Program-made: the position numbers and the translations under genes
In this document: piece by piece, positions 3,996 through 50,247 of the stretch
Layout: each line of letters opens with the position of its first letter
Numbering within the stretch: the stretch's first letter is position 1
Notes under the pieces: generated by a model
The model's input: only the letters and a program-made list of their open reading frames with translations
Database searches by the model: none
What the model was told of the DNA's origin: nothing
NCBI RefSeq assembly: GCF_947077775.1
Contig: NZ_CAMTTE010000001.1
Coordinates: 3,190,501 to 3,254,500 of the forward strand
From: Salinibacter pepae
Lineage (GTDB): Bacteria; Bacteroidota; Rhodothermia; Rhodothermales; Salinibacteraceae
Length of the DNA stretch: 64,000 nucleotides
Direction: 5' to 3'

Positions 3996-4475
3996 CTAAT
4001 TGGCACCTAGCATCCATTGCCGAAGCCCTTCGGGCCCCAGCTCGTTGTACATCGTCTGGATCCGGGCCACGCCGTCGTCTGTGATGTGGGCACGGAGAAT
4101 TTTCTCGATCATTGTGGCCAGTGCAGGCGGCATCTTCTGCTCAACATCAACCTCGAGGGTCCGCTCTCCTTGGTTCAGGGTGCGAAAGGCGAGCGGGGCC
4201 GCGGCCGCCGTGGCGGTCTCGGAGGGCAGGTGATCGGATAAAATCTCCTGGACCACTGTCGCCGGGGAGCGGGCGTTCTGGTCCTGTGCCGTCCCCATCA
4301 ATGCCTCCAATTCCGCTCGCACCTCCTCCGACAGCTGAAGGTCGTGAAGCCCATTCGTTTTCAGGTGGGTGTGAAGGCGTTGCGCCAGGCGTTCCGCCTC
4401 CTTTTCGTTCGGGATGTGGGTGAGTGTCCAACCGCGCAGCCAGTCCTGCGCCGTCGGCGTCCTGGAGGATTCCAT
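3996..4475 (-). CDS. Hypothetical acidic protein
   Basis: A 159-residue protein is proposed from ATG at 4475; the frame stays open to 4607, but the extra 44 residues (rich in Arg, Pro and Cys) look untranslated. The protein is mostly helical by composition, with a predicted helix containing AERLAQRLHTHLK and a C-terminal segment ending GLRQWMLGAN. There is no signal peptide, membrane segment or motif that I recognise. It is convergent with the membrane protein gene to its left (61 bases between stops). The start is uncertain because no ribosome-binding site is visible. Confidence 0.6.
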   Translation of the reverse strand: MESSRTPTAQDWLRGWTLTHIPNEKEAERLAQRLHTHLKTNGLHDLQLSEEVRAELEALMGTAQDQNARSPATVVQEILSDHLPSETATAAAAPLAFRTLNQGERTLEVDVEQKMPPALATMIEKILRAHITDDGVARIQTMYNELGPEGLRQWMLGAN

Positions 4476-5127
4476 GTCGGTGCGTGTCGGGTCGGTTCGT
4501 TGGAAGAACGCGCGGCGTTCGGGAGCCCCCATCCACGCGCCCCCTCTCGGCTCGGGACGGGCGTGCGACGCGCAGGTTGTCGTCTGAACCCAGCAAAAGA
4601 CGAACAACAGATGCGCCGAGAACCTCAGTTTCCGTTTAGAATGTGGTCAAATCCCTAACAAGGACCATTCCACCAGGGGGATGACTCGGCGAGGGCCGCC
4701 AAAGCGCACTGCGGTGGGCTTTGAGACAACAGGCCAGGGGGAGGTGGGGTGGGCTACTCTGATGTGTAAGAGGCGAGTGCACATGCGGAAGGCGGTACGA
4801 GGCCCCCACCAGGCGGACGGGTCCAAAAACGGGCGGATCTTTGTTAACAAAATATTAAATTAAGGAGAAGTGTTGACAAACACGCACTCACCTCCAATTT
4901 TAGAACATGCTAAGATCATTCAACGGGGGCCGTAAGAAAGGCGATGCCCTCAAAACGGGGAGTAGGAGGGGCTTGGGGGCACCGCAGCGCAGTCCAACGG
5001 CTGTGGGGGCCCTCGTCTCAATCTGTCGGGGGCAGACGCGTATCGTCCCCGATCCGGAGGGCGCAGTGTCCCATGATCCGCCTGTCCGCGCCCCCTGCGT
5101 TGGCCATCGAATCGGTAGAGCAGAGAC
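4476..5127. other. 650-base gene-poor region with an AT-rich patch
   Basis: I find no convincing gene here. Short open frames lack typical codon use. The notable element is an AT-rich patch at about 4843-4912 in otherwise GC-rich DNA, containing runs such as AACAAAATATTAAATTAA and a TTGACA hexamer at 4873-4878. This is the likely control region of the prodomain/protease pair that starts at 5128, about 220 bases downstream, implying a long leader if the promoter is real. Confidence 0.5.
4873..4903 (+). promoter_or_regulatory. Possible promoter of the prodomain/protease operon
   Basis: TTGACA at 4873-4878 matches a -35 consensus exactly, and an AT-rich ATTTTA/TTTTAG stretch sits 18-19 bases downstream. 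The -10 match is poor and the Bacteroidota-type TAnnTTTG element is not present, so this rests mainly on the -35 match and the local AT richness. Confidence 0.3.
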
Positions 5128-5505
5128 ATGTCCGATCGCGTGGTTGCCCAGGTGAGTCTCCAGTCCGCCGAGGGGTCGTCTGTGTTGGACGCCGACGAGC
5201 CCATTACGTCGGACACTGTAGACGACTACCGGGCCGGAACGAATGCGATTGAGGGCGCGAAGGAGGCGCTCCGCGGCCTCGGGTTTGACGTTGTTCAGGC
5301 CAGTGAGGTGGGGCTTTCCATCTCGGGGGACAAGGACCGATTCGAAGAGGTGTTTGACACCACGCTGAAGGCGCGCTCCGAATCTGCCGACGCGGAGCCG
5401 GGCGATCGCCAAGCGTACGAGGCAGCGGAGCCGGTTCAGGTGCCGGACGCGCTTGCGGCCTTCGTGGACGAGATCACCTTCCCCGTTCCCCCTGAGTTTC
5501 ATTAG
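5128..5505 (+). CDS. Stand-alone protease prodomain-like protein
   Basis: This 125-residue acidic protein has no signal peptide. It is visibly related to the first about 130 residues of the subtilase encoded 63 bases downstream: both begin MSD, share an EP[IV]T...VD[DE]Y segment, an LGF-[IV] turn, an IS[VI]-G segment followed by a [QR]F[EQ][ED]VF helix, and both end in PPEFH. In the free protein PPEFH is the very C-terminus; in the protease it marks the prodomain/catalytic boundary. The pattern resembles the ferredoxin-like activation domains of sedolisins and subtilases. I infer an in-trans inhibitor or folding chaperone for the neighbouring protease. The family relation is seen in the sequence; the function is inference. 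Confidence 0.82.
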   Translation: MSDRVVAQVSLQSAEGSSVLDADEPITSDTVDDYRAGTNAIEGAKEALRGLGFDVVQASEVGLSISGDKDRFEEVFDTTLKARSESADAEPGDRQAYEAAEPVQVPDALAAFVDEITFPVPPEFH

Positions 5506-5568
5506 CTCGCTCGATGCACACCCGACGTTCACCCTCAATGACCTTGTTCATCACACACCAGAACGATC

Positions 5569-7125
5569 ATGTCTGACGCCGAAGCAGATCAGGAAATCGT
5601 CACCATCATCTCAACCACATCCAAGGGAGGACGCTCCCTTTTCGAAACCGAAGAGCCCGTCACAGGAGCGAATGTTGACGAGTACAACTCGGACCCGGAC
5701 GTTACGGAGGAGGCCGAGCGTGAACTCCGAGAATTGGGATTTCGCATTTTGGACGTGGGCCCAGCAACCATCTCGGTCGGGGGCTCGGCCGAGCAGTTCC
5801 AGGATGTTTTTGGGGTGGCCCTTGAGGGCAAGAAAAAGGAAGTGTTCGACGGCGAAGAAGCGGAGTACGTTGATGTCGAAGAGGAGGGCGAAGAAATGGC
5901 CGGGGCGCTGGGCGACTGGGCGGAGGGCGTCACCCCGGTCGTTCCCCCCGAGTTCCACACGGAGAGTCCCCTCTCGCCCATCGCGGAACCGCACTCGGAC
6001 GCGTACCACTACTTCACGGTGCCCGACGAGGTTGCCACGATCCTCCGCGCCACGCGGGTACACCGCAACGGCATCACCGGGTCGAAGGTCGAGGTGGCAA
6101 TGCCGGACACCGGATTCTACGAGCACGAATTTTACGAGCGGCGGGGCTACCGCACGCGCTCAACGATACTCGGGCCCGGGGCCAGTAACCCGTCGCAGGA
6201 CAACTACGGGCACGGCACCGGGGAGGCGGCCAACATTTTTGCGGCCGCCCCAGACGCCCAGCTCATCCCGGTAAAGATGGGGAACGACGCGGTCGGGGCG
6301 TTCAACAAGGCCTGCAATCAGAGTCCAGACATCATCACAAACAGCTGGGGCTGGTCCGTTGACAGGCCGGGCACGTCGTGGAGCGACATCCGAAGCCGCA
6401 GCCGCTCCCTGTACAACACGCTGAAGGCGATGGAGGCCGCGATCGCCAACGCCGTAAACAACGGCATTGTCGTGTGCTTCTCCGCGGGAAATGGTCCAAA
6501 CGGGTACGGTTTTCCGGCGAGCCACCCCGACGTCATTGCCGTGGGGGGCGTCCACGTAAACTATCCGGACCTGGACCTTGAGGCCTCCAGCTACGCGGCC
6601 AGCTTCGACAGCAGTTTGTACGCGGGGCGGCAGGTGCCGGACCTCTGCGGGATGGTCGGGGACGACGTATCGTCCCTGCCCGCTCCGCTCCTCATGCTGC
6701 CCGTGCCGCCGGGAAGCCGGCTCGACACCTCGTCGACCGGGGCCGCAGACGACAGCTGGGGCCTCTTCAGCGGAACGTCGGCCGCAGCCCCGCAGGTGGC
6801 GGGGGTGGTGGCCCTGATGCTGGAAAAGAACAGCTCCCTCAGCCCCTCCGAGGTGAAGAAGAAACTCGTCAACCAGGCCGCCAAGGACGTGACCAAGGGC
6901 CAGAGTGCAATGGGCGACTCGGCGGGGCCGGGCGACGACGCGGCAACCGGCGCGGGCATGGTCGACGCCAAGTGGGCCTGGGTCGTGTCCATGGGCGACA
7001 CGATGGCCCGCTTCTTCGAGGCGACCCCAGAGAGGCGCGAACGGCTCATCGAGGAAGACGCCGTTCCGGAAATTGACGGGGAGTTTGTGGAGGACATGAT
7101 GCAGACCCTCCGTTCGCGGTCGTAG
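5569..7125 (+). CDS. S8 subtilisin-like serine protease with N-terminal prodomain
   Basis: This is a 518-residue protein. Residues 1 to about 130 form an acidic prodomain related to the preceding gene product and ending in PPEFH. The catalytic domain follows with Asp180 (PDTGF), His215 (GHGTG), oxyanion Asn308 (SAGN) and Ser404 (SGTSAAAP), an intact S8 triad. After about residue 460 a charged tail is present. No signal peptide or lipobox is seen, so it appears cytoplasmic or exported by an unrecognised route, unlike most subtilases. The prodomain looks more like a pro-kumamolisin (S53) activation domain than the usual I9 propeptide, although the triad is S8. The substrate is unknown. It is probably co-transcribed with the prodomain gene. 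Confidence 0.93.
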   Translation: MSDAEADQEIVTIISTTSKGGRSLFETEEPVTGANVDEYNSDPDVTEEAERELRELGFRILDVGPATISVGGSAEQFQDVFGVALEGKKKEVFDGEEAEYVDVEEEGEEMAGALGDWAEGVTPVVPPEFHTESPLSPIAEPHSDAYHYFTVPDEVATILRATRVHRNGITGSKVEVAMPDTGFYEHEFYERRGYRTRSTILGPGASNPSQDNYGHGTGEAANIFAAAPDAQLIPVKMGNDAVGAFNKACNQSPDIITNSWGWSVDRPGTSWSDIRSRSRSLYNTLKAMEAAIANAVNNGIVVCFSAGNGPNGYGFPASHPDVIAVGGVHVNYPDLDLEASSYAASFDSSLYAGRQVPDLCGMVGDDVSSLPAPLLMLPVPPGSRLDTSSTGAADDSWGLFSGTSAAAPQVAGVVALMLEKNSSLSPSEVKKKLVNQAAKDVTKGQSAMGDSAGPGDDAATGAGMVDAKWAWVVSMGDTMARFFEATPERRERLIEEDAVPEIDGEFVEDMMQTLRSRS

Positions 7126-34899: not shown

Positions 34900-35526
34900 A
34901 TGAGTAGCGGACTGATTGGAAAGAAAGTCGGAATGACCAGCGTCTTCGACGACGAGGGCAACAACGTGGCCTGCACGGTCGTGGAGGCGGGGCCCAACGT
35001 CGTGACGCAGGTGAAGTCGGAGGGCCGTGACGGCTACCGCGCGGTGCAGCTTGGCTTCGACAACGTGAAGGAGAAAAATGTGACACAGGCCATGCTGGGC
35101 CACTTTGAGAAGGCCGGGTGCCCGCCCAAGCGCATGCTCTCCGAATTCCGCGACTTCGGCGACGACGTAGACCTCGGCGATGTCGTGCGCGTTGAGGACC
35201 TCTTCCAGGAGGACGAGCGAATCGACGTGGTCGGCGTGTCGAAGGGAAAAGGCTTTCAGGGCGTGGTAAAGCGCCACGGCTTCAGTGGCGTCGGCATGAT
35301 GACCCACGGCCAGTCCGATCGCCAGCGGCACCCCGGATCGATTGGCGCGTCGGCGGACCCGTCGCGCGTCTTCAAGGGCGTCCGCATGGCGGGCCAGACC
35401 GGCGGCGAGCGCACCAAGATTCAGAACCTCCGCGTGGTCCGAATACTTGCGGATCAGAACGCCATTCTTATCCACGGCTCCGTGCCGGGGCCGAAGAGCG
35501 AATACGTAGAGCTGCACAAGAAATAG
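34900..35526 (+). CDS. rplC: 50S ribosomal protein L3
   Basis: A 208-residue protein with the conserved [15 protein letters not shown] start, the [15 protein letters not shown] loop and the HRQ-type peptidyl-transferase-facing segment [12 protein letters not shown], then [13 protein letters not shown]. The GATC-type glutamine methylated by PrmB in other bacteria would be in the [12 protein letters not shown] stretch. An upstream GGAG (about 10 bases before ATG) is one of few SD-like sequences in the cluster. Follows the lipoprotein by 53 bases. Confidence 0.98.
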
Positions 35527-35599
35527 AGGAGCCGCGAAAGCCTGGGCGTCCGCCCAGCTTCCGCATCGATGCACTGCAAACTGTTGAGGCCACGAACCC

Positions 35600-36247
35600 A
35601 TGGACGTTGACATCTACCAAGACGACGGGGTAGAGTCGGGGGAAACCGCCGAGCTCGACCCGACGGTCTTCGACATTGAGCCGAATGACCACATCATTTG
35701 GCTGGACGTGAAGCGCATTCAGGCCCATCAGCGACAGGGCACGAGCAAGACCAAAGAGCGCGGCGAAGTGCGGGGGTCTGGCCGGAAGCTCTATCGCCAG
35801 AAGGGAACCGGAAACGCCCGGGTCGGCGACGCCCAGTCGCCCATCCGTCGGGGCGGAGGACGGGCCCATGGGGCGCGGCCTCGCGACTACGCCCACGACC
35901 TAAACCAGAAGGAGAAGCGCCTGGCCCGGCGGTCCGCCCTTTCGTACAAGGCCGCGAACGACAACATCCAGGTGATCGAGAACTTCTCGCTGGACCGGCC
36001 CGACACCCGAGGGCTTACGGACCTCTTCGACCTGCTGGGCGTGGAGGGGCAGGACATTCTGCTCGCAACCGCCGAGGTGGAACGTGAGGTCTACTTGAGC
36101 TCGCAGAACCTTCCGGACGTGAACGTGCAGGAGGTCCAAAGCATCAACACGGTCGACATCCTGGACGCCGACGTCGTTCTGCTCCAGGAGGGCGCGCTCG
36201 ACTGGCTCACGGACGTCCTTTCAACCGACGAGGCCGTGCCGGCGTAG
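35600..36247 (+). CDS. rplD: 50S ribosomal protein L4
   Basis: A 215-residue protein. The core is the extended loop that lines the exit tunnel (QRQGTSKTKERGEVRGSGRK and QKGTGNARVGDAQSPIRRGGGRAHG). The N-terminal about 20 residues and the C-terminus are acidic. L4 is also an autogenous repressor of the S10 operon in enterobacteria; whether this holds here is unknown. Confidence 0.97.
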   Translation: MDVDIYQDDGVESGETAELDPTVFDIEPNDHIIWLDVKRIQAHQRQGTSKTKERGEVRGSGRKLYRQKGTGNARVGDAQSPIRRGGGRAHGARPRDYAHDLNQKEKRLARRSALSYKAANDNIQVIENFSLDRPDTRGLTDLFDLLGVEGQDILLATAEVEREVYLSSQNLPDVNVQEVQSINTVDILDADVVLLQEGALDWLTDVLSTDEAVPA

Positions 36248-36303
36248 CGCCCGTCCCCGGTTCCGATCTGCCTGTTGCACTCCCCAACGAGCACCGTTGA
36301 CCC

Positions 36304-36603
36304 ATGAGCAAACGCGTACTGATTCGCCCCTACGTGACCGAAAAGACCACTCAGCAGATGCAGGAGGGCAAGTATTCCTTCATGTGCGGGCTCGACGCCA
36401 CGAAGACCGAAATTCGGAGGGCGGTGGAACACCGCTACGACGGCGTTGAGGTCGAGGACGTCCGGACCCAGGTCGTCCCGGGGAAGCGTCGTCGCCAGTT
36501 CCGTGACGGAAACATGATTGAGGGCCGGACCTCCGGCTTCAAGAAGGCCATCGTGGACCTGGACCCGGACGGGGAACAGATTGACTTCTTCGAGGGCATT
36601 TAG
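36304..36603 (+). CDS. rplW: 50S ribosomal protein L23
   Basis: A 99-residue protein with the IRPYVTEKTTQQM start and the VDVEDVRT-type (here VEVEDVRTQVVPGKRRR) core. It sits at the tunnel exit and binds trigger factor and SRP. The conserved glutamate of trigger-factor binding is likely within the EVEDV stretch. Spacing to rplB is 52 bases. Confidence 0.97.
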   Translation: MSKRVLIRPYVTEKTTQQMQEGKYSFMCGLDATKTEIRRAVEHRYDGVEVEDVRTQVVPGKRRRQFRDGNMIEGRTSGFKKAIVDLDPDGEQIDFFEGI

Positions 36604-36655
36604 GTGCCCTTGCCTAAGCCTGTACGACCCTTTGAACCGCTGACAACCCAGCGCC

Positions 36656-37507
36656 ATGTCGATTAAAAAGCGAAAGCCGACCATAAACAGCCAGCGCCAG
36701 TACTCGGTGGACGACAAGGAGGACATCACCACCACCGATCCGGAGCGCAGTCTGCTGGAGCCCCTCCCGAACAGTGGGGGCCGCAACAACCAGGGCCGCA
36801 TGACGATGCGCTACCGGGGGGGCGGCCATAAGCGCCGCTACCGCAAGATTGACTTCAAGCGGCGCAACAAAGACGGCATCCCGGCCACGGTGAAGACGAT
36901 TGAGTACGACCCGAACCGCTCGGCCCGCATTTCGCTGCTCGCCTACGCCGACGGGGAGAAGCGGTACATCATTACGCCCGACGGGCTGGAGGTGGGGGAT
37001 ACGGTCATGAACGGCCCGCAGGCACAGGCTGAGGTGGGCAACTGCCTTCCGCTGACCAGCATTCCGCTGGGAACGAAGGTTCACTGCGTCGAGATGACGC
37101 CGGAGAAGGGGGCTCAGATGGTTCGTGCCGCGGGCACGCACGCCCAACTTACCGCCCGCGAAGGCGACTACGCGACGCTTGAACTTCCGAGCGGGGAGAC
37201 GCGCCTCGTGCCCTCGAAGTGCCGGGCGACCGTCGGCACGACCAGCAACGTCGAGCACGAGAACGTGGTGCTCGGCAAGGCCGGTCGGAAGCGATGGCTC
37301 GGTCGTCGGCCCCGCACCCGCGGCGTGGCGATGAACCCGATCGACCACCCCATGGGCGGCGGTGAGGGCCTGAAGTCCGGCGGCCATCCCCGGTCCCGAG
37401 AGGGCGTGCCGGCGAAGGGGTACAAGACCCGCAAGCGCAACAAGGAATCAAACAAGTACATCATCCGGCGCCGCACGGAGTCGAAACAAGGAGCCGGGGG
37501 CCAGTAA
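36656..37507 (+). CDS. rplB: 50S ribosomal protein L2
   Basis: A 283-residue protein, slightly longer than the 273-280 usual because of an N-terminal insert. It has [15 protein letters not shown], the [21 protein letters not shown] stretch, and the C-terminal peptidyl-transferase-associated segment [17 protein letters not shown] with the essential histidine (NPIDHP, His229-equivalent). Normal S10-cluster position. Confidence 0.98.
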
Positions 37508-37582
37508 TCGTCCCGATCAGCCGGGGCCCTCGACCCCACCCGCGAGCCGCCTACACTTTCGGATTCAAACTTCCCCGACGAC

Positions 37583-37876
37583 ATGCCTCGCTCTCTACGC
37601 AAAGGCCCGTACGTATACTACAAGCTGCAGCGCAAGGTCGACGCGCTCAACGAGTCCGACGAAAAGAAGGTCATCAAGACCTGGAGCCGCGATTCGATTA
37701 TTACGCCGGACTTCGTCGGCCACACGTTTGCCGTTCACAACGGACACCAGTTTATCCCGGTGTACGTGACGGAGAACATGGTGGGGCACAAGCTCGGCGA
37801 GTTCGCCCCGACGCGTACATTCACGGAGCACTCGCAGGCAAAGGTGGACCAACGGATCCGCAAGCCGGGACAGTAG
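37583..37876 (+). CDS. rpsS: 30S ribosomal protein S19
   Basis: A 97-residue protein of the 30S head: [11 protein letters not shown] start, the [22 protein letters not shown] core and the [13 protein letters not shown] end. The C-terminal tail ends at IRKPGQ. Standard order rplB-rpsS-rplV. Confidence 0.97.
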
Positions 37877-37964
37877 TGCCCGGTTGACGGCGCCGGCTGG
37901 ACCCCAGTGAGCGCCCATCCCTGCTCCGCGACCCTGATTTTCCCCGCAAACCGCACGACGAGAC

Positions 37965-38330
37965 ATGCAAGCACGAGCCGTCCGCAGGCACATTCGGAGC
38001 TCTCCCCTCAAGATGCGTCGCGTCATCAACCTGGTGCGCGATCGGAGTGTGCCCGAGGCCGTTGCGATTCTGGACTACATGCCGCAGAAGGTGACCGGCG
38101 TCGTGGAGAAGACGATCCGTTCCGCCGTCTACAACCTGATGGACCAGCACGACGAGCGCTTCGACGAAGGGGCCTTGAAGCTCAAGGAGATTCGGGCCGA
38201 CGAGGGCCCGACGTTCCAGCGCCACCAGGCGCGCGCCCGAGGCCGTGCGGCGCCCATTCGCAAGCGCACGACCCACCTGAAGGTGGTCGTGGCGGTCGAG
38301 GAGGAGGACCCCGAAGAGGCGGCCGCGTAG
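37965..38330 (+). CDS. rplV: 50S ribosomal protein L22
   Basis: A 121-residue protein starting with ATG 37965 (MQARAVRRHIRSSPLKMR). The tunnel-lining beta-hairpin (GPTFQRHQARARGRAAPIRKRTTHLKVVV) is present, without the MKR deletion linked to macrolide resistance discernible at this level. The C-terminus is an acidic EEEDPEEAAA extension, a halophile feature. Confidence 0.97.
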   Translation: MQARAVRRHIRSSPLKMRRVINLVRDRSVPEAVAILDYMPQKVTGVVEKTIRSAVYNLMDQHDERFDEGALKLKEIRADEGPTFQRHQARARGRAAPIRKRTTHLKVVVAVEEEDPEEAAA

Positions 38331-38391
38331 CCTGCATGCCGTTTTCGACATCACACGTTGCTCTCTGAACTAATACACGAGGTACACACCC

Positions 38392-39102
38392 GTGGGCCAG
38401 AAAACACACCCCATAGGCTTTCGCCTCGGCGCCATCCGGGGTTGGGACTCCAACTGGTACTCCGAGACCAACTTCCAGGACAAACTCGTCGAGGACGAGG
38501 AACTGCGCCGCTACCTGCACACGCGCCTCAAGCGCGCCGGCCTGAGCCGGGCCGTGATTGAGCGCACGCCGGAACGGGTCATCCTGACCCTCCACACGAG
38601 CCGTCCGGGCGTCGTGATTGGCCGGGGCGGGTCCGAGGTTGAGAAGCTGAAGGGAGAGCTCGAGACCCTTACGGGCAAGGACATTCAGATTAACATCAGC
38701 GAGATCAAGCGTCCGGAGCTCGACGCTACGCTCGTGGCGAAAAACATCGTGCAGCAGCTGGAGGGGCGAATCTCCTTCCGGCGGGCCATGAAGCAGGCCA
38801 TGCAGGCCGCCATGCGCATGGGGGCCGAAGGGGTGCGCATCCGTGCCGCCGGGCGTCTGGGCGGGGCCGAGATGGGGCGCACCGAGGAGTACATGGAGGG
38901 CCGGGTGCCGCTCCACACGATTCGTGCAGACATTGACTTCGCCCAGGAGACCGCTCTTACAATCTACGGCACAATCGGCGTCAAGGTCTGGATTCACCGC
39001 GGCGAGATCCTCGGCAAGCCGGACCTGAGCCCGAACGTGCAGGCGCAACAGCGCAAGATGAAAGAGTCGCCCCAGCAGCGTCGCCAGCGCCGCGGGGGGT
39101 GA
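38392..39102 (+). CDS. rpsC: 30S ribosomal protein S3
   Basis: A 236-residue protein starting at GTG 38392 ([20 protein letters not shown]). It contains the KH domain ([18 protein letters not shown]) and the C-terminal domain with the [15 protein letters not shown] and [27 protein letters not shown] segments, part of the mRNA entry helicase. The tail is short and ends QRRRQRRGG-like (RRQRRGG). Confidence 0.97.
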
Positions 39103-39162
39103 CCTCCTGCGTCGGCGGCCCACCCTCTTTAAACCGATCACACGCACCTGCCTTTACGACCC

Positions 39163-39600
39163 ATGCTAGAGCCCAAAGACACAAAGCACCGCAAGGTCCA
39201 GCGCAACCAGGGCCTGAAGCGGAACAAGTACGCCGTGAAAGGCACCCGTCTCAGCTTTGGCGACTACGGCCTGAAGTCCCTCGAGGAGGGCGAGGTCAAC
39301 AGCCGCCAACTTGAGGCGGCCCGGGTGGCGATCAACCGCTACCTGAAGCGGGACGGAAAGGTGTGGATCCGCGTGTTTCCGGACAAGCCCAAGACGAAGA
39401 CCCCGGCGGAGACGCGGATGGGGAAGGGCAAGGGGGAGCCCGAGCACTTCGTCGCGCCGGTGCAGCCGGGCAACGTCATCTTTGAGGTGGGCGGCGGTGC
39501 CGACGAAGAATCGGCACGAGAGGCCCTGCGCCTGGGCAAGCACAAGCTGCCGCTCAAAACAAAATTTGTGGTCCGTCCGGGCTCACGGGCCGAGGAGTAG
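39163..39600 (+). CDS. rplP: 50S ribosomal protein L16
   Basis: A 145-residue protein with the [14 protein letters not shown] start, the [29 protein letters not shown] core and the [18 protein letters not shown] loop near the A/P sites. It is the bacterial homologue of eukaryotic uL16 and has the usual 136-145 residue range. 60 bases after rpsC. Confidence 0.98.
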
Positions 39601-39647
39601 GTTCGTGTGTGCGTGTTCGGGCCCGTTCACCCAAGCCATTTAGACTG

Positions 39648-39857
39648 ATGGATGCCGACCAGATTCGAGACCTCAGCATCGCGGAAATTGAGACGCGGAT
39701 TGACGAGGAGGAGGAAGAGCTGGAAGAGCTTCAATTCCAGCACGCCATCCGGGGACGCCTAGAGAACCCGATGCTCCTTCGGACCAAGCGCCGTCTCATC
39801 GCCCGCCTGAAAACGATTCGCAACGAAAAGCAGGCCGTTGAGGAGGAGCCCGCATAG
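39648..39857 (+). CDS. rpmC: 50S ribosomal protein L29
   Basis: A 69-residue helical protein from ATG 39648; an in-frame ATG at 39609 would add 13 basic residues that do not fit the family. It has the RDLSIAEIETRI helix and the RLENPMLLRTKRRLIARLKTI core next to the tunnel exit. The central loop is Glu-rich (DEEEEELEELQ). Confidence 0.95.
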   Translation: MDADQIRDLSIAEIETRIDEEEEELEELQFQHAIRGRLENPMLLRTKRRLIARLKTIRNEKQAVEEEPA

Positions 39858-39917
39858 CCGTTTCCGCCGCGCCCGCCGATGCACCCACTCAGACGATCAC
39901 ATTGCCGATAGGGTATT

Positions 39918-40226
39918 ATGGAGCAGACTGAAGAGCATACCGACACGCACACGGACGAGCAGGACGAAGCCGTCGACCGAAACGACCGCAAGGAGCGCAT
40001 TGGGGTCGTCGAGTCGGCCAAGATGGACAAGACCATCACCGTGTCCGTCCGTCGCCAGATGAAGCATCCGATGTACGGGAAGTACCTGGAACGGTCCTCC
40101 ACGTTCATGGCCCACGACGAAGACGACGCGGCCAACGAAGGGGACACGGTCCGGATTATGGAGACGCGTCCCATTAGCAAGAACAAGCGATGGCGACTTG
40201 TTGAGATCATTGAGCGGGCCAAGTAA
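39918..40226 (+). CDS. rpsQ: 30S ribosomal protein S17 with acidic N-terminal extension
   Basis: A 102-residue protein. The first about 25 residues (rich in Glu, Asp, Thr and His) precede the normal S17 OB-fold, which starts at [17 protein letters not shown] and includes [23 protein letters not shown] and [18 protein letters not shown]. The typical S17 is 80-90 residues, so the extension is specific to this lineage and probably a salt adaptation. Confidence 0.96.
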
Positions 40227-40310
40227 CGGACGCATCCTTCAGCGGCGGCCCGGACCCCTCCGGCCCCCATGTGGCCTTTTTACTTCGAACACTGAACCTG
40301 GACGACACCC

Positions 40311-40679
40311 ATGATTCAACAAGAGACGCGACTCAACGTGGCCGACAACAGCGGGGCCAAGGAAGCACAGTGCATCCGTGTGCTCGGCAGTAGTGGACGC
40401 CGCTACGCCGGCATCGGGGATCAGATTGTGGTTTCCGTCAAGTCGGCCATTCCGAGCGGAGAGATCAACAAGGGCGACGTGAGCCGGGCCGTCGTGGTAC
40501 GGACCGCCAAGGAGACGCGCCGCGAAGACGGCACCTACATCCGCTTCGACGAGAACGCGGCCGTGCTCATTAACCAGGAGGAGGAGCCGGTCGGGACGCG
40601 CGTCTTTGGGCCTGTGGCGCGGGAGGTCCGCGAGAAGCAGTTCATGCGCATCGTATCCCTTGCTCCCGAGGTGCTGTAG
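40311..40679 (+). CDS. rplN: 50S ribosomal protein L14
   Basis: A 122-residue protein: [18 protein letters not shown] start, [27 protein letters not shown] core, and [28 protein letters not shown] end. It contacts the 30S at bridges and is the binding site of the silencing factor RsfS. First gene of the spc cluster, 84 bases after rpsQ. Confidence 0.98.
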
Positions 40680-40732
40680 CTCCGTCGGGTCATCCCGGTT
40701 GCACTAGCGAACCAACATCTACCGCGAAGCCC

Positions 40733-41104
40733 ATGGCTCAGAACAAGTTACACGTTAAGCAGGGCGATATGGTCATGCTTAACAAGACCATCACGTCCGC
40801 CAAATCCGCCGGCGAGGACCGAGAAGCCGGGTATGTGGGAAAGGTTCTGAAGGTGTTTCCCGACGAGCAGCGCGTGATTGTGGAGGGCGTCAACGTGCGC
40901 GTCTTCCACGAGAAGCCGAGCCGCTCCAACCGAGAGGGGGGACGAACTGAGCGGGAGGCGCCCATTCACGTTTCCAACGTCAACCCGATTGACAGCAACG
41001 GCGAGGCCACGCGGATTGGCCGAAAGAAGGTGGAGGATCCGGACACCGGCCGGTCCCGCTGGGTGCGGTACGCCAAGACGACTGGGGAGGAACTCGACGA
41101 CTAG
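40733..41104 (+). CDS. rplX: 50S ribosomal protein L24
   Basis: A 123-residue protein, longer than the usual 100-110, with a KOW motif ([14 protein letters not shown] to [23 protein letters not shown]) and the HVSNVNPID segment. The C-terminal part ([23 protein letters not shown]) is an acidic extension. It is an early assembly initiator near the tunnel exit. A 133-base gap to rplE is wider than most in this cluster and shows no gene. Confidence 0.96.
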
Positions 41105-41237
41105 TTTGGGGCGACGCGCGGCATGAATCGCCCGTGCAACAGGAACCCCGCTCGTGCATCATCGATTTTCAACGTCTGCGGCCGCCGAGTTATTCTGGAG
41201 GCCGCGGCGCAACTTCCGAGCTTTGACCCTTTGAGCT

Positions 41238-41813
41238 ATGGCCGACGTTCCGCGACTTCAGAAGCAATACCAGGACGAGGTTCGTCCCTCGCTGACGGAC
41301 CAGTTTGGGTACGAGAACCCGATGGAGGTGCCCCGCCTCGAGAAAATCTGCGTCAACCGAGGGGTCGGGGAGGTTTCGGAGAACCAGAAGGCCCTTGACC
41401 AGGCCGTGGAGGAGATGCGGAAGATCACGGGCCAGCACCCGACCATTCGGCGCGCGAAGCGAAGCATCGCGAGCTTCGACGTGCGGGAGGGAATGCCTGT
41501 CGGCGTGAAGGTGACCCTCCGGGAGGCTCGGATGTACGAGTTTTTCGACCGGCTCGTCACGCTCGCCCTGCCCAACATTCGAGACTTTGGGGGCGTGCCC
41601 GACCGCAGTTTCGACGGCCATGGCAACTACACACTTGGCATCGACGAGCAGATCATCTTCCCCGAGATCGACGTGGACAACGTCGACCGCATTGACGGCA
41701 TGGACATCACGTTTGTGACCGACGCGGAAACCGACGAGGAGTCCTACGCCCTCCTCAAGGGGCTGGGCATGCCGTTCGTCCGGCGTGGAGACGAAGAGCC
41801 AGCCGAGGCGTAG
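41238..41813 (+). CDS. rplE: 50S ribosomal protein L5
   Basis: A 191-residue 5S rRNA-binding protein: [15 protein letters not shown] start, then [50 protein letters not shown], and the [12 protein letters not shown] and [20 protein letters not shown] segments. The C-terminal tail is slightly longer and acidic. The ATG at 41238 follows a leader without SD. Confidence 0.98.
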
Positions 41814-41887
41814 TGACGACTGGCGTTCTGGCGACGCCTCCCGTGCGCGCTTAGATCTACACAGGACAGATTCTACACACCGACGAT

Positions 41888-42157
41888 ATGGCCAAGAAAA
41901 GCTGGATTGCCCGTGAAGAGAAGCGGGAACGACTCTACGAGAAACACAAGGAGGAGCGGCGGCGGCTCAAAGAGGAGGAAAAGTGGGTCGAGCTGCAGAA
42001 GCTTCCCCGAGACTCCAGTCCCGTTCGCCAGAACAACCGGTGCAAGCTATGCGGCCGGCAGCGCGGGTATCTCCGCAAGTTTGGCGTCTGCCGAATCTGC
42101 TTCCGCGAGCTTGCCCTCGAAGGCAAGATTCCGGGCATCCGGAAATCGAGCTGGTAG
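41888..42157 (+). CDS. rpsN: 30S ribosomal protein S14 with zinc-ribbon cysteines
   Basis: An 89-residue protein, the length of the long C-minus form, but with Cys52, Cys55, Cys68 and Cys71 in the C-x2-C-x12-C-x2-C arrangement of the short zinc-binding C-plus form. It is highly basic with an unusual Glu/Lys/Arg-rich N-terminal half ([24 protein letters not shown]), and ends GIRKSSW as usual. S14 is placed in the 30S head. The combination of long length and intact zinc motif is uncommon and is noted separately. Confidence 0.97.
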
Positions 42158-42250
42158 CCGCTGCGCCCCGGCGGTTGCGAGCACAGCCAGAGCGGCCCCC
42201 TCCCTCTTGGCCCCCGAGTCCCCTTCCGAACCGACGATTCGACGCCCGAA

Positions 42251-42652
42251 ATGAGTGGTATTTCCGACCCCGTCTCGAACTACATGGCTCAACTCCGCAA
42301 TGCGCAGGAGGCGGAGCAGACCTATGTGGACATCCCCGCCTCCAAGCTGAAGCGGGCCATGACCCAGATTCTCCTCGAAAAGGGGTACATTAAGAACTTC
42401 GTCAACATCGACGATGAGAAGCAGGGCCTCCTCCGGGTCTACCTGAAGTATGACGAGTACGACCAGCCGGCCATCCGGATGCTGGAGCGGGTCTCGCGTC
42501 CGGGACGCCGCGAATATGCGGACTCGGACAACCTGCCGGAAGTGAAAAACGGCCTCGGCATCGTCATTTTGTCGACGTCCCGGGGCGTGATGAGCGACAA
42601 GGAAGCCCGCCGGTTTGGGGTGGGCGGCGAAGTGCTGGCCAAGGTCTTTTAA
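42251..42652 (+). CDS. rpsH: 30S ribosomal protein S8
   Basis: A 133-residue protein that binds the 16S central domain. It has the SDPVSNYMAQLRNA start, KLKRAMTQILLEKGYI, and the C-terminal NGLGIVILSTSRGVMSDKEARRFGVGGEVLAKVF. In E. coli it represses the spc operon. The middle is acidic. 93 bases after rpsN. Confidence 0.98.
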   Translation: MSGISDPVSNYMAQLRNAQEAEQTYVDIPASKLKRAMTQILLEKGYIKNFVNIDDEKQGLLRVYLKYDEYDQPAIRMLERVSRPGRREYADSDNLPEVKNGLGIVILSTSRGVMSDKEARRFGVGGEVLAKVF

Positions 42653-42719
42653 CCACGCCCCTGCACTCACGGGCGTGCCTGCCCGCCAACTCCGTTGCAC
42701 GAGACGAACGATTGAATCC

Positions 42720-43274
42720 ATGGCTCGAATAGGAGACAACCCGATCCCGTTCGGTGACGACGTCACCGTGTCGGTCGACGATCACAACGTAGTGACGATC
42801 GAAGGGCCGAAGGGGACCCTCACGGAGCAGATTGACCCGGAGATGACCCTAGAAGTTGCCGACGACCACGTGGTCGTCCGGCGCCCGACCAACCAGAAGC
42901 GGCACCGCTCGCTGCATGGCCTCAGTCGGTCCCTCATCGTAAACATGGTCGAGGGGGTTACGGAGGGCTACAAGAAAGAGCTGAAGATCATTGGGGTGGG
43001 CTACCGGGCCCAGATGTCCGACGAGACCCTTGAGATCGCCCTCGGCTATTCGCACCCGATCTACTTCCTGCCGCCGAGTGATGTCGCGGTGTCGGTGGAT
43101 GCGGACCGGGGCCAGGACGACATCATCATCGTGGAGGGCATCGACAAGGAATTGGTGGGACAGGTTGCGGCGAAAATTCGCAGCCTCCGTCCCCCGGAGC
43201 CGTACAAAGGAAAAGGGGTGCGGTACGTGGACGAGCACGTGCCCCTCAAGGCCGGCAAGACGGCGGCTCGCTAG
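42720..43274 (+). CDS. rplF: 50S ribosomal protein L6
   Basis: A 184-residue protein from ATG 42720 (MARIGDNPIPFGDDV); the longer open frame upstream is not family-like. Two related alpha/beta domains are seen: GPKGTLTEQIDPEM to RHRSLHGLSRSLIVNMVEGVTEGYKKELKIIGVGYRAQ, and GYSHPIYF to IEGIDKELVGQVAAKIRSLRPPEPYKGKGVRY. It sits near the GTPase-associated centre. Confidence 0.97.
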   Translation: MARIGDNPIPFGDDVTVSVDDHNVVTIEGPKGTLTEQIDPEMTLEVADDHVVVRRPTNQKRHRSLHGLSRSLIVNMVEGVTEGYKKELKIIGVGYRAQMSDETLEIALGYSHPIYFLPPSDVAVSVDADRGQDDIIIVEGIDKELVGQVAAKIRSLRPPEPYKGKGVRYVDEHVPLKAGKTAAR

Positions 43275-43349
43275 TCCCTTCTCTTCGGTCGTGCCCCGCA
43301 TTGCGGGGCCGGCTTGCTTCCATCGAACGACCACGACGACACAGCGGTT

Positions 43350-43709
43350 ATGCCAAAGGGTAAAAAAGAAAAGGTCGAACGCCGACAGCGAATTCACGAC
43401 AGCATTCGGGAGTCCATGTTTGGGACCTCGGTGCGTCCCCGCCTGTCGGTCTACCGGTCCAACGAGCACATCTACGCCCAGCTGGTTGACGACATGGAGG
43501 GGCATACGCTCACCTCCGCGTCGAGCCTGGCGGACGACGTAGGGGGGGAGACCCCGACGGAGGAAAGCCGGTCGGTGGGCGAACTGCTCGCCGAGCGGGC
43601 CGAAGAGGCAGGCATCGACAAGGCGGTCTTCGACCGAGGGGGGTACAAGTATCAGGGACGCGTTCGGGCCTTGGCGGAGGGCGCCCGTGACGGCGGCCTT
43701 CAGCTGTAG
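43350..43709 (+). CDS. rplR: 50S ribosomal protein L18
   Basis: A 119-residue 5S rRNA-binding protein from ATG 43350 ([20 protein letters not shown]). Conserved features are [24 protein letters not shown] and the C-terminal [29 protein letters not shown]. The central insert ([31 protein letters not shown]) is acidic. Confidence 0.96.
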
Positions 43710-43759
43710 TCCCCCGACGATCGTAGCAACTATCCTCGCACGGAGCACCACGTACAGAC

Positions 43760-44287
43760 ATGGCGGATCGAAAAGAACAGAAGCGCGTCAACGCCGAGAA
43801 GCGGCAGGAAAACTGGGTGGATCGACTTGTGTCGGTCAACCGGGTCTCGAAGGTCGTGAAGGGCGGGCGTCGATTTTCCTTTAACACCGTCGTGGTCGTC
43901 GGAAACGAGGACGGCCTCGTCGGCACGGGCCTGGGCAAGGCCAACGAGGTCTCGAGTGCCATTTCGAAGGGAGCGGACGACGCGAAGAAAAACGTCATCC
44001 GCGTCCCGATGCGCGACGGCACGATTCCCCATAAGGTGGTGGGGAAGCAGGACGCCGGAAAGGTTCTCCTGAAGCCGGCCTCGCCGGGAACCGGAGTAAT
44101 TGCGGGCGGAGGCGTCCGGGCCGTGCTTGAGTGTGCCGGGTACCGAAACGTGCTTACGAAATCGCTCGGCACGTCCAACCCGCACAACCAGGTCAAGGCG
44201 ACGATCAACGCCCTCGCGGAGACCGAGGATGCCCTGGAGGTGGCCCGGCGACGGGACATCCCCCTCGAAAAGGTGTTCAACGGGTAG
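43760..44287 (+). CDS. rpsE: 30S ribosomal protein S5
   Basis: A 175-residue protein. The double-stranded RNA-binding-like N-domain ([28 protein letters not shown]) and the fidelity region [28 protein letters not shown] are present, with [16 protein letters not shown] after it. Basic Gly/Arg loop at KGGRRF corresponds to the spectinomycin site region. 50 bases after rplR. Confidence 0.98.
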
Positions 44288-44426
44288 TGGGTGGGGCCCG
44301 ACGCAACCCTCGGGGGGCGACCGGTCTCAACTTGCACCCCGGTGGGCCCGGCGCCCGGAGATAAGCACCGCACGCGCACGTCACTGCGCACGTCATTTGA
44401 GTTACCACAAGGACGGACGGATCGAC
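44288..44426. other. Gap where rpmD (L30) is expected
   Basis: 139 bases separate rpsE and rplO, where rpmD (about 60 codons) usually lies. I find no L30-like reading frame on either strand; the sequence is GC-rich with short inverted runs (GGGCCCG near 44295 and 44343-44352). The gene appears lost from this site. Confidence 0.7.
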
Positions 44427-44897
44427 ATGGATTTGAGTAATCTGAAGCCGGCAGAAGGGGCGACCCAAGCGGGACAGCGCCTCGGACGAGGCGAGGGCTC
44501 CGGGCGGGGCGGCCACAGCTCGACCCGCGGAACCAAGGGGCAGAGCAGCCGATCGGGGGCAGGGACGCGCCCGATCTGGTTTGAGGGGGGACAGACGCCG
44601 CTCTTTCAGCGGGTCCCGAAGCACGGGTTCAACAACGCCCCTTTTCGCACCGACTACGCCATTGCGAACGTCAAGCGCCTGCAACGGCTGTTGGACGAAG
44701 AGGTCCTGGACGGGGACGATCCCGTCACGCCGGAGGTGCTCGCGGACCTTGGAGTGGTCCGAACCGCCAACCGGGTCAAGATTCTGGGCGACGGCGACCT
44801 GTTCGATGCGCTTGAGGTCAAGGCGCACGCCTTCAGTGAATCGGCCCGACAAAAGATCAAGCAGGCGGGCGGTTCAGTAACGGTTGTCGACCAGTGA
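44427..44897 (+). CDS. rplO: 50S ribosomal protein L15
   Basis: A 156-residue protein from ATG 44427: MDLSNLKPAEGATQAGQRLGRGEGSGRGGHSSTRGTKGQ-type start with the Gly/Arg-rich extended tail, then the PLFQRVPKHGFNN core and the globular C-domain with GDGDLFDALEVKAHAFSESARQKI. Late-assembly protein, typical position before secY. Confidence 0.98.
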   Translation: MDLSNLKPAEGATQAGQRLGRGEGSGRGGHSSTRGTKGQSSRSGAGTRPIWFEGGQTPLFQRVPKHGFNNAPFRTDYAIANVKRLQRLLDEEVLDGDDPVTPEVLADLGVVRTANRVKILGDGDLFDALEVKAHAFSESARQKIKQAGGSVTVVDQ

Positions 44898-44953
44898 GCT
44901 GGTTGGCGTCGGGCCCCTCTTCCCCGTGGCTTACGCATCAACGAGGCTGACTC

Positions 44954-46285
44954 ATGGCTGGCTTTGCCGAAAGCATCCGCAACATCTGGAGTGTGCAGGA
45001 GCTCCGGGAGCGCATTCTGTACACGCTCGGCATCCTCCTCATCTACCGGCTGGGCACGCATGTGACCCTCCCCGGGGTGGATGCGGCCGCCCTCGCGCAG
45101 GTGCGGGCCCAAGAAGGAGGCGGGGGCCTCTTCGGCTTCCTCGACATGTTCGTCGGGGGCGCGTTCAAGCAGGCTGGCATTTTCGCATTGGGCATCATGC
45201 CCTACATCACGGCGTCCATCATCATTCAGCTGATGGGGGCCGTCGTCCCGTACTTCCAAAAGCTACAGCGGGAGGGCGAAGAGGGGCGACGACGGATTAC
45301 GCAGCTCACCCGATACGGGACGATCGGCATCACGGCCTTGCAGTCGATTGGGTACTCGATCAACCTCTTGGCGGGGGCCACCGGGCGGGCCGTCGTGATC
45401 AACTCGACCCTGTTCACCATCACGACGGTCGTGGTGTTGACCAGTGGGACGGCGTTTGTGATGTGGCTCGGGGAGCGCATCAGCGAAGACGGCATCGGGA
45501 ACGGCATCTCGCTGATCATCACGATTGGCATCATCGCGTTCCTGCCCCAGGCTCTCTACAACGAAATCGGCCTAATTGGCGACAACTTCTTCATCCTGCT
45601 CGTTGAGATCGGGGTCTGGGTGCTCGTGGCGGGGGCGGTGGTCCTGGTGTCTCAGGGCATGCGCCGGATACCGGTGCAGTACGCCAAGCGCGTGGTGGGG
45701 AAGAAGGTGCAGGGCGGAACGACCCAGTACCTTCCCCTTCGGGTGAACGCGGCGGGCGTGATGCCGATCATCTTCGCACAGTCGATCATGTTCATCCCGT
45801 CAACGATCGCGTCGTTCTTCCCGAACAATGCGACGATGCAGCGGGTCGGCGGCTGGTTCTCGGACATTAGCAGCATGAGCTACTCGGCGGTTTTCTTCGT
45901 GGTGGTCGTGTTCTTCACGTACTTCTACACCGCGATCACGGTGAACCCGCAGGAGATGGCCGACACCATGAAGCGGCAGGGCGGGTTTATTCCGGGCATC
46001 CGGCCCGGCAAGCAGACCAGTGAGTTTATCGACACTGTTCTGACGCGGATCACGCTCCCGGGCTCTATATTCCTTGGCCTCGTGGCCATCTTCCCGGCTT
46101 TTGCGATGCAGGCGGGGGTATCGCAAGGATTCGCGATGTTTTACGGGGGGACGAGTTTGCTCATTCTCGTGCAGGTGACCCTTGATACCCTGCAACAGAT
46201 CGAAAGCCACCTGCTCATGCGCCACTACGACGGCTTTATGAAAAGTGGCAAGATGCGCAGCCCCCGGCAGGGCGGGGGCCTCTAG
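44954..46285 (+). CDS. secY: Preprotein translocase subunit SecY
   Basis: A 443-residue channel protein with ten membrane helices. Helix 1 begins LRERILYTLGILLIYRLGTHVTLPG; a plug-like stretch follows at GGLFGFLDMFVGGAFKQAGIFALGIMPYITASIIIQL; the cytoplasmic loops with QSQGMRRIPVQYAKRV (here SQGMRRIPVQYAKRVVGKK) bind SecA and ribosome. It forms SecYEG for export and insertion. Located 56 bases after rplO in the spc cluster, as usual. Confidence 0.98.
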   Translation: MAGFAESIRNIWSVQELRERILYTLGILLIYRLGTHVTLPGVDAAALAQVRAQEGGGGLFGFLDMFVGGAFKQAGIFALGIMPYITASIIIQLMGAVVPYFQKLQREGEEGRRRITQLTRYGTIGITALQSIGYSINLLAGATGRAVVINSTLFTITTVVVLTSGTAFVMWLGERISEDGIGNGISLIITIGIIAFLPQALYNEIGLIGDNFFILLVEIGVWVLVAGAVVLVSQGMRRIPVQYAKRVVGKKVQGGTTQYLPLRVNAAGVMPIIFAQSIMFIPSTIASFFPNNATMQRVGGWFSDISSMSYSAVFFVVVVFFTYFYTAITVNPQEMADTMKRQGGFIPGIRPGKQTSEFIDTVLTRITLPGSIFLGLVAIFPAFAMQAGVSQGFAMFYGGTSLLILVQVTLDTLQQIESHLLMRHYDGFMKSGKMRSPRQGGGL

Positions 46286-46357
46286 GCCCTTTGCGACTGA
46301 ACGAGCTTTTTCATGCGGTGGTTGTCCCGCCTCTGGAACCGAACCTTCGGAGCTTCT

Positions 46358-47182
46358 ATGGTGCATCTGAAAAGCCAACGCGAAATTGACTGCCTGCGCG
46401 AGAGTGCCAATCTCGTCGGGCAGACGCTCGCCGAGGTGGCCCGCCACATTGAGGTGGGCGCGACGCTGCGGGAGCTTGACGCCGTCGCGGAGGAGTACAT
46501 CCGAACACAGGGAGGGGAGCCCGCATTCAAGGGCTATCAGGTGGGGGACAACGTTTTTCCCAACACGCTGTGCACGTCCGTCAACGATGCGGTCGTACAC
46601 GGCATTCCGGACGATTATGCGCTTCAGGATGGCGACCTCCTGTCCATCGACTGTGGGGCAAAATTGAACGGCTATTACGGCGACTGGGCGTATACGTTTG
46701 CCATCGGGGACATTGCCGAAGAGGACGCCGCGCTCTGCCGCGCAACCCACCGGGCTCTTCTGGGGGGGATTGAACAGGCGGTTGCCGGCCAACGGGTGGG
46801 CGACATCAGCCACGCCGTGCAGTCGCATTGCGAGTCCCAGGGGTTTAGCGTGGTGCGCGACCTTGTGGGGCACGGCGTCGGTCAGGATCTGCACGAAGAT
46901 CCGCAGGTGCCAAACTTTGGGGACCCGGGGCGCGGCCGTTCGTTGAAGCCCGGCCTCTCAATTTGCATCGAACCGATGATTAACCGGGGCACGGCCCGGG
47001 TTGTGACCGACGACGACGGATGGACCGTGCGCGCCGCCGACGGACTTCCCTCCGCCCACTACGAGCATATGGTGGTCGTGCGGGACGGAGAGCCGGAGGT
47101 TCTCTCCGACTACGGATACATTGAAGACGTGATCGACCCCCCTTACGAAGCTGACGCTCTTACAGAAACCACCATTCGCTAA
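46358..47182 (+). CDS. map: Methionine aminopeptidase type I
   Basis: A 274-residue enzyme from ATG 46358 ([11 protein letters not shown]), chosen because GGAG lies about 8 bases upstream and the family begins here; ATG 46313 would add 15 residues. Metal ligands are visible in [20 protein letters not shown] (two Asp), [18 protein letters not shown] (His), and CIEPMI plus YEHMVVV (Glu). It removes N-terminal methionine co-translationally. map-infA adjacent to secY is typical of Bacteroidota and Firmicutes. Its TAA overlaps the next ATG (TAATG). Confidence 0.96.
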
Positions 47183-47403
47183 TGGCAAAAGAAGAGGCCA
47201 TCGAGAAAGACGGGGAAGTTATCGAAGCACTCCCCAACGCGCAGTTTCGCGTTCGACTGGAGAACGGCCACGAGATCCTCGGGCTCCTCTCCGGAAAGAT
47301 GCGGATGAACTATATCAAGATTTTGCCGGGGGATCGGGTCAAGGTCGAGATGTCCCCGTATGACCTTTCCAAGGGGCGGATTGTGTATCGCTACAAGAAC
47401 TAG
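47182..47403 (+). CDS. infA: Translation initiation factor IF-1
   Basis: A 73-residue OB-fold protein: [34 protein letters not shown] to [22 protein letters not shown]. It occupies the 30S A site during initiation. Translational coupling with map is through a TAATG overlap. The next 88 bases to rpsM lack the rpmJ (L36) gene usually found after infA. Confidence 0.97.
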
Positions 47404-47491
47404 CCTTCTCCCCGGAAGGCGGGAGAAGCTGCGGGGCGGGGAGCGTGCGTAGTGGCTGCTCGGACTCTAGAACGAACCCAACTGACAAGTC

Positions 47492-47875
47492 ATGCCGAGA
47501 ATTGAAGGAGTTGACGTGCCGGACGACAAGCGTGGAGAAATCGCGCTCACCGACATCTACGGGGTGGGCCAGTCGCGGGCCAGTGAGATCCTGGAGAAAG
47601 CAGAGGTCAGCGTAGACAAGCGCCCCCGTGAGTGGACCGAGAGCGAGACCAAGCGTGTGCGGCGCATTATTGAGGAAGACTACACCGTCGAAGGCCAGCT
47701 CCGCACTGAGGTGCAGATGAACATCAAACGGCTGAAAGAAATCGGGTGCTACCGCGGCAAGCGGCACCGCGAGGGGCTGCCCGTCAACGGCCAGCGCACG
47801 CGGACCAACGCCCGGACCCGGAAGGGCAAGCGGAAGACCGTGGCGGGCCGCAGCCAGTCGACCCAGAAGAAGTAG
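47492..47875 (+). CDS. rpsM: 30S ribosomal protein S13
   Basis: A 127-residue protein: [29 protein letters not shown] start with the helix-turn-helix, [20 protein letters not shown], and the C-terminal [36 protein letters not shown] tail that touches the P-site tRNA. Standard position in the alpha cluster. Confidence 0.98.
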
Positions 47876-47962
47876 GGCGGCCTCGGCACTTTGCATTTCC
47901 ATCCCGGCACGGGCCAACGCTGCACGCCGGGTTCTCTCCCAAGACAAACACCGAATAGTTTC

Positions 47963-48367: not shown

Positions 48368-48477
48368 ACCGATCCCGCGCGAAGCGGGCGGGCCCCGCGG
48401 GGCGACACGCCTCGAGGCCCCGCCCCGCACCCCTCGCCCTGTTTGTACACAACACCTGACACCCGACACCGAATATT

Positions 48478-49080: not shown

Positions 49081-49176
49081 AGTCGGGCGGCGTCCCGCGC
49101 CCACCGCGCCGAGCGCACCACGACGCGCTCGATCCAAACCACGACATTATTCCTTACAACTTGCTGATCCGAGCGT

Positions 49177-50163: not shown

Positions 50164-50247
50164 CGCCCGCCGAGAACGGCCTCGGGGCTTTACCTGGATG
50201 GTTCCGTCCGCACTGCATCGCGATTCGTCACCCGTTAGAGACTACCA

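What the first reader, a model, noticed from the sequence alone, without database searches (positions are those of the whole stretch)
5128..7125. Free-standing protease prodomain next to a prodomain-bearing cytoplasmic subtilase
The 125-residue protein and the first about 130 residues of the following S8 protease share conserved segments and an identical PPEFH end. In the protease this is the prodomain boundary; in the small protein it is the C-terminus. The prodomain resembles the pro-kumamolisin (S53) activation type, yet the protease has an intact S8 Asp/His/Ser triad and no signal peptide. An internal propeptide plus a separate one suggests an inhibitor/chaperone pair with a trans-acting brake, possibly a toxin-immunity, stress-proteolysis or peptide-maturation system. 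The functional part is inference.
Basis: partly seen in the sequence, partly recalled or inferred. Interest (0 to 1): 0.85.

Follow-up and report, generated by a model that had tools for sequence, protein, structure and literature searches.

The report
Protease with a second, free-standing prodomain
Some salt-loving bacteria carry, next to the gene for an apparently internal protein-cutting enzyme, a small gene that is a free copy of that enzyme's own safety catch; similar pairs occur in two other bacterial phyla, so it is probably a separate brake (or folding helper) for the protease, although this has not been tested.

Summary
The 125-aa protein (5128-5505) is homologous to residues 10-130 of the S8 protease encoded 63 bp downstream (BLASTP E 1e-11; shuffle Z 22.7), and both end in PPEFH. 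The predicted fold of the small protein matches the prodomain of pro-kumamolisin (1T1E, Z 8.5 over 118 of 125 residues) better than subtilisin propeptides (Z 5-6). The catalytic domain is a normal S8 subtilisin, and neither protein has an obvious signal peptide. The small gene is under purifying selection (dN/dS 0.15-0.26). In Salinibacter the two genes occur together in 4 of 13 genomes and are both absent from the other 9. Three of those 9 show an empty site. Relatives of the protease in Calothrix (Cyanobacteria) and Nonomuraea (Actinomycetota) also have a free prodomain gene directly upstream; rhizobial relatives do not. Most likely the small protein binds the mature protease in trans, its C-terminus lying in the active site, as inhibitor and perhaps foldase. 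Stand-alone propeptide inhibitors beside their protease are known (Plasmodium SUB1-ProM, streptococcal Spi), so this is a new variant of a known kind: prokaryotic, probably cytoplasmic, with an S53-type prodomain on an S8 enzyme. Binding, inhibition and physiological role remain inference.

The parts
5128..5505 (+). Free-standing prodomain protein P0001, 125 aa, ends ...VPPEFH; predicted beta-alpha-beta-beta-alpha-beta fold like the pro-kumamolisin prodomain
5488..5502 (+). PPEFH C-terminus of the free prodomain (residues 121-125)
5569..7125 (+). S8 protease P0002, 518 aa, prodomain + catalytic domain + about 45-residue C-terminal tail
5569..5958 (+). Internal (cis) prodomain, residues 1-130, ending PPEFH (residues 126-130 at 5944-5958)
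6013..6984 (+). S8 catalytic domain, about residues 149-472; D180 (6106-6108), H215 (6211-6213), N308 (6490-6492), S404 (6778-6780); boundaries approximate
3996..4607 (-). Divergent neighbour g203, no known family; present with full-length similarity only in the same four Salinibacter genomes and inside the same inserted stretch. Possible third member, function unknown

Best explanation
The pair is a probably cytoplasmic S8 protease that carries its own S53-type prodomain in cis and has a second, free-standing copy of that prodomain encoded just upstream. The cis prodomain helps the protease fold and is cleaved off near PPEFH. The free prodomain then binds the same site on the mature enzyme in trans, with its C-terminal PPEFH lying in the substrate groove like the cleaved propeptide. 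It keeps the enzyme off inside the cell, and may also help it fold, until the free prodomain is degraded or diluted. Shown here: homology, adjacency, purifying selection, co-retention and recurrence in three phyla, and predicted fold. Inferred: cleavage site, binding, inhibition, cytoplasmic location, and what releases the brake.
For: Homology to the cis prodomain with the same C-terminal end. AF2 model (pLDDT 70) whose best PDB matches are the prodomains of pro-kumamolisin and TPP1 (Z 8.5, 7.9, 7.6), with subtilisin propeptides lower down among other proteins. dN/dS 0.15-0.26, so a maintained gene. Present in all four Salinibacter genomes that have the protease and absent from the nine that lack it. 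Free prodomain directly upstream of the relative's gene in Calothrix (profile E 1e-36; 244 bp from the protease gene) and Nonomuraea (E 7e-20; overlapping or abutting it). All free copies end 0-2 residues beyond the (P/S)(E/D)F(H/L) segment that aligns with the cis boundary. Precedents: SUB1-ProM is a stand-alone propeptide-like inhibitor encoded beside subtilase genes (PMC6993865); the CspB prodomain supplied in trans restores folding and its C-terminal residues block the active site (PMC3567191); Spi, a propeptide analogue, is encoded beside SpeB (PMC2873492).
Against: No binding or inhibition data. The joint single-chain model has pLDDT 55 and does not show docking. Rhizobial relatives with intact triads manage without a free copy. 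The free copy evolves faster than the cis prodomain (dN/dS 0.15-0.26 against 0.05-0.12), which could also mean a looser or different role. PPEFH as a cleavage site is unproven; the mature domain would begin about 18 residues later by homology to subtilisin.
Confidence: 0.62

Rival explanations
1. The free prodomain is mainly a foldase: it helps the protease reach its native state in trans and is then destroyed, with little steady-state inhibition.
For: Prodomains of S8 enzymes act as chaperones in trans (CspB, PMC3567191). The small gene comes first in the pair, 63 bp upstream.
Against: The protease already has a cis prodomain of the same fold, and rhizobial relatives do without the free copy.
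Confidence: 0.17
2. The free prodomain is a substrate, competitor or adaptor: it is cut by the protease or links it to another protein (for example the neighbour g203), and its loss or cleavage is the signal.
For: Faster evolution than the cis copy; g203 is inserted with the pair at the same site in four genomes.
Against: The C-terminal motif is held across all four Salinibacter copies (PEFH) and a similar end is seen in two other phyla, as expected for a part that sits in the active site. No g203 relative was found in plasmid records.
Confidence: 0.13
3. The small gene is a duplication relic without function.
For: It is a partial copy of the neighbouring gene, and such duplications can be neutral.
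Against: dN/dS 0.15-0.26, open frame and C-terminus kept in four genomes; a free copy also occurs beside relatives in two other phyla.
Confidence: 0.04

Closest known systems
Plasmodium SUB1-ProM / SUB1 (PMC6993865)
   Same: Stand-alone propeptide-like protein encoded beside subtilase genes; potent, selective inhibitor of the subtilase; also carries a C-terminal tail directed to the active site
   Different: Eukaryotic and thought to act in the parasitophorous vacuole; its modelled core is closest to the SUB1 propeptide, not an S53 type; inhibition was measured there and not here
Streptococcal SpeB-Spi
   Same: Bacterial protease gene juxtaposed and co-transcribed with a propeptide-analogue inhibitor (PMC2873492)
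   Different: Cysteine protease (C10), unrelated fold, secreted enzyme
Stand-alone I9 inhibitors (yeast proteinase B inhibitor, Pleurotus POIA1, Arabidopsis SPI-1)
   Same: Small free proteins with the propeptide fold that inhibit S8 enzymes (PMC6993865)
   Different: Eukaryotic and I9 type; P0001 has no I9 match by sequence
Pro-kumamolisin / TPP1 prodomain (S53)
   Same: Best fold match of P0001, 118 residues, Z 8.5 and 7.6-7.9
   Different: There it is a cis prodomain of an S53 enzyme; here it is free and beside an S8 enzyme; sequence match below Pfam cut-off
Bacterial intracellular subtilisins (ISP)
   Same: S8 enzyme without signal peptide whose activity must be held off inside the cell (PMC6220982)
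   Different: ISPs have a short LIPY/F pro-peptide instead of a prodomain; P0002 has a 130-residue prodomain and a free copy

Membership tests
S8 subtilase (P0002) | Asp/His/Ser triad with oxyanion Asn in the subtilisin fold | tested here: met
   Pfam Peptidase_S8 97.4 bits; D180, H215, N308, S404 invariant; model matches subtilisin BPN' Z 23.6 over 230 residues
S53 sedolisin (P0002) | Glu/Asp/Ser catalytic residues with an oxyanion Asp and no catalytic His (definition from own knowledge) | tested here: not met
   P0002 has His in GHGT and Asn in AGN
Pro-kumamolisin activation domain (PF09286) | Sequence score above Pfam's gathering cut-off | tested here: not met
   16.3 bits against 23.5; subthreshold in 4 of 6 free copies and in the Rhizobium cis prodomain; hhalign against three S53 prodomains not significant
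Pro-kumamolisin activation domain (PF09286) | S53-type prodomain fold | tested here: met
   1T1E top hit in Foldseek (E 9.5e-3, prob 1.00) and VIA (Z 8.5, 118 residues); TPP1 Z 7.6-7.9; viral subtilase-family proteases top in BFVD. Predicted model of moderate confidence (pLDDT 70), so a fold match, not proof of descent
Inhibitor I9 (PF05922) | Sequence match to the I9 family | tested here: not met
   No Pfam I9 hit; hhalign against 19 I9 domains not significant
Inhibitor I9 (PF05922) | I9 propeptide fold | tested here: inconclusive
   Subtilisin propeptides match at Z 4.9-5.8, as do unrelated ferredoxin-like folds
Stand-alone propeptide-like protease inhibitor | Separate small gene beside the protease, homologous to or folded like its propeptide | tested here: met
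Stand-alone propeptide-like protease inhibitor | Inhibits the neighbouring protease | not testable with these tools
   needs an enzyme assay
Intracellular subtilisin (ISP) | Short pro-peptide with LIPY/F motif | tested here: not met
   No LIPY/F motif near the N-terminus; a 130-residue prodomain instead (definition from PMC6220982)
Toxin-immunity pair / anti-phage system | Match to a known system or association with defence genes | tested here: inconclusive
   Only a generic PADLOC 'subtilase' model matches P0002, none matches P0001; immediate neighbours are pdxA-, hemB- and cysS-like genes (names from reading the translations)

The most novel reading that the evidence does not exclude
A mobile, so far unnamed intracellular protease-brake system in bacteria: an S8 protease paired with a free S53-type prodomain. 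The free copy either arose more than once from the cis prodomain or keeps co-evolving with it, and it acts like an antitoxin: a labile trans brake whose loss unleashes proteolysis.
Probability: 0.15. Interest if true: 0.75.

Novelty: new variant of a known kind. Interest (0 to 1): 0.5.

Why it matters
The stand-alone propeptide inhibitors of subtilases named in the paper read here are eukaryotic (fungi, plants, apicomplexa). A bacterial operon-like version that recurs in three phyla would show that separating a prodomain into a trans regulator is a general solution, and would offer a small, testable system for how an S8 protease is held off inside a cell. An S53-type prodomain on an S8 catalytic domain also bears on how the two halves of these proteases are exchanged in evolution.

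Tried and rejected
Viral contigs: no relatives of the family or of the free prodomain; generic S8 enzymes only. Phage records: none. Plasmid search with P0001 itself: none; the Calothrix copy was needed to find the Nonomuraea one. PDB sequence searches with the prodomain profiles gave only chance-level hits. hhalign against S53 and I9 domains was not significant (the first run, used wrong strands and is discarded). Single-chain model of both proteins, read through the stops: too poor for docking. Promoter/terminator scan, Rfam scan and repeat search at the pair: nothing useful. Considered and dropped: split-gene or frameshift artefact (both ORFs are complete with their own start and stop in four genomes); a larger fused partner in Nonomuraea (the long ORF is mostly an overlapping frame; the homologous part is about 83 aa).

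Full report
WHAT IS THERE. The window is from Salinibacter: the one genome-contig hit is S. altiplanensis, with the protease 92% identical, and the window's own genome is 3.6 Mb. Two ORFs lie 63 bp apart on the + strand: a 125-aa protein at 5128-5505 and a 518-aa S8 protease at 5569-7125. The small protein aligns to protease residues 10-130 at 29% identity, E 1e-11. The local score is 168, against 33 +/- 6 (maximum 64) in 2000 shuffles. Both end the shared part with PPEFH, which is the C-terminus of the small protein and residues 126-130 of the protease. In the whole genome these two places are the only clear copies of the domain.

THE PROTEASE. Pfam Peptidase_S8 matches at 97 bits. PDB relatives by sequence are subtilisins. 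D180, H215, N308 and S404 are invariant in eight relatives. In a low-confidence model (pLDDT 55) the catalytic part still matches subtilisin BPN' with Z 23.6 over 230 residues. It is therefore S8 and not S53. No signal peptide is evident by reading; both proteins are acidic (pI about 4-4.8), as expected in a halophile.

THE PRODOMAIN FOLD. With a four-row alignment the small protein gives a beta-alpha-beta-beta-alpha-beta model, pLDDT 70. The top PDB match is the prodomain part of pro-kumamolisin 1T1E (Foldseek E 9.5e-3, prob 1.00; Z 8.5 over 118 of 125 residues, chain 36-169), then TPP1 (Z 7.9, 7.6). Subtilisin propeptides reach only Z 4.9-5.8, alongside unrelated ferredoxin-like folds. Among viral predicted structures the two best matches are annotated as subtilase family serine proteases. 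By sequence the same family surfaces only below threshold (16.3 bits against 23.5; 4 of 6 free copies), and hhalign is not significant, so the claim is a shared fold, not Pfam membership. The cis prodomain shows the same order of elements in the joint model.

IT IS A REAL, KEPT GENE. Over four Salinibacter genomes dN/dS is 0.15-0.26 for the free prodomain, 0.05-0.12 for the cis prodomain and 0.03-0.06 for the catalytic part. Both genes are found in the same four of 13 Salinibacter genomes and neither in the other nine, three of which are under 90% complete. Nothing comparable is in 245 genomes of the class or 296 of the phylum. In three pair-less Salinibacter genomes the two flanking genes lie within about 25-90 bp of each other, whereas in the four carriers 3.5 kb sits between them, holding a divergent gene g203 (3996-4607), the free prodomain and the protease. 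This is most simply read as gain of a block.

THE PAIR RECURS. Protease relatives with the prodomain were found on plasmid-collection records of Calothrix sp. 336/3 (39% identity), Nonomuraea gerenzanensis (41%), Mesorhizobium, Aminobacter and Rhizobium (about 31%). In Calothrix a 121-aa ORF (annotated hypothetical, with a later start) lies directly upstream and is a free prodomain (profile E 1e-36); in Nonomuraea an ORF of about 83 aa, not in the record's gene table, abuts the protease gene (E 7e-20; E 4e-9 to the Calothrix copy). The Nonomuraea copy overlaps an opposite-strand ORF, but that ORF's strong third-position GC bias begins only further in, and codon positions on the + strand fit coding. 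Rhizobial neighbourhoods hold no free copy. The Paenibacillus relative lacks a prodomain and its C-terminus continues in another frame.

EVOLUTION. The Calothrix and Nonomuraea free copies are each other's closest (score 137), while the Salinibacter free copy is closest to its own cis prodomain (168, against 74 and 56 to the other free copies). The tree groups likewise but with weak support. Either the free copy arose at least twice, or free and cis copies co-evolve with their protease. The data do not decide.

MECHANISM. Best reading (0.62): a trans-acting prodomain that binds the mature enzyme, C-terminus in the groove, as inhibitor and perhaps foldase. Shown: homology, predicted fold, adjacency, selection, recurrence. 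Inferred: cleavage, binding, inhibition, location, release. Direct precedents are SUB1-ProM (PMC6993865), the CspB prodomain in trans (PMC3567191) and Spi (PMC2873492). Rivals: pure foldase (0.17), substrate/adaptor (0.13), relic (0.04). Nothing here supports a toxin-immunity or peptide-maturation role in particular.

NOVELTY. A new variant of a known kind. The idea of a free propeptide next to its protease is known; the S8 enzyme with an S53-type prodomain plus a free copy, probably cytoplasmic and in three bacterial phyla, was not found in the papers searched, a library that lacks most subscription journals.

Noticed in passing
window 3996-4607 (-): Gene g203 of unknown family evolves fast (66-70% identity between species) and is present with full-length similarity only in the four Salinibacter genomes that carry the protease pair, within the same inserted stretch; a weak relative (32%) exists in one other species.
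   Followed up: partly
L025 and L026 (Mesorhizobium MesoLjLa4, Rhizobium pCC283b_4): Relatives of the S8 protease sit inside plasmid clusters of purine-like and 7-deazapurine genes (PurB, PurH, FolE, QueC, QueE, beta-RFAP synthase), which look like an unusual nucleoside biosynthetic cluster with its own protease.
   Followed up: no
L027:5866-6989 (Paenibacillus pY5S7-1): A relative of the protease lacks the prodomain and its C-terminal part continues in another frame; integrase-like fragments lie upstream; probably a decayed copy.
   Followed up: partly
L023:5651-5899 (Nonomuraea gerenzanensis): Free prodomain ORF of about 83 aa whose stop overlaps the start region of the protease ORF, with an overlapping opposite-strand ORF; not annotated in the PLSDB gene table, which lists no features in this stretch.
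   Followed up: yes
window about 34900-50841: A run of ribosomal protein, SecY, methionine aminopeptidase and RNA polymerase alpha genes (recognised by reading the translations): ordinary.
   Followed up: no
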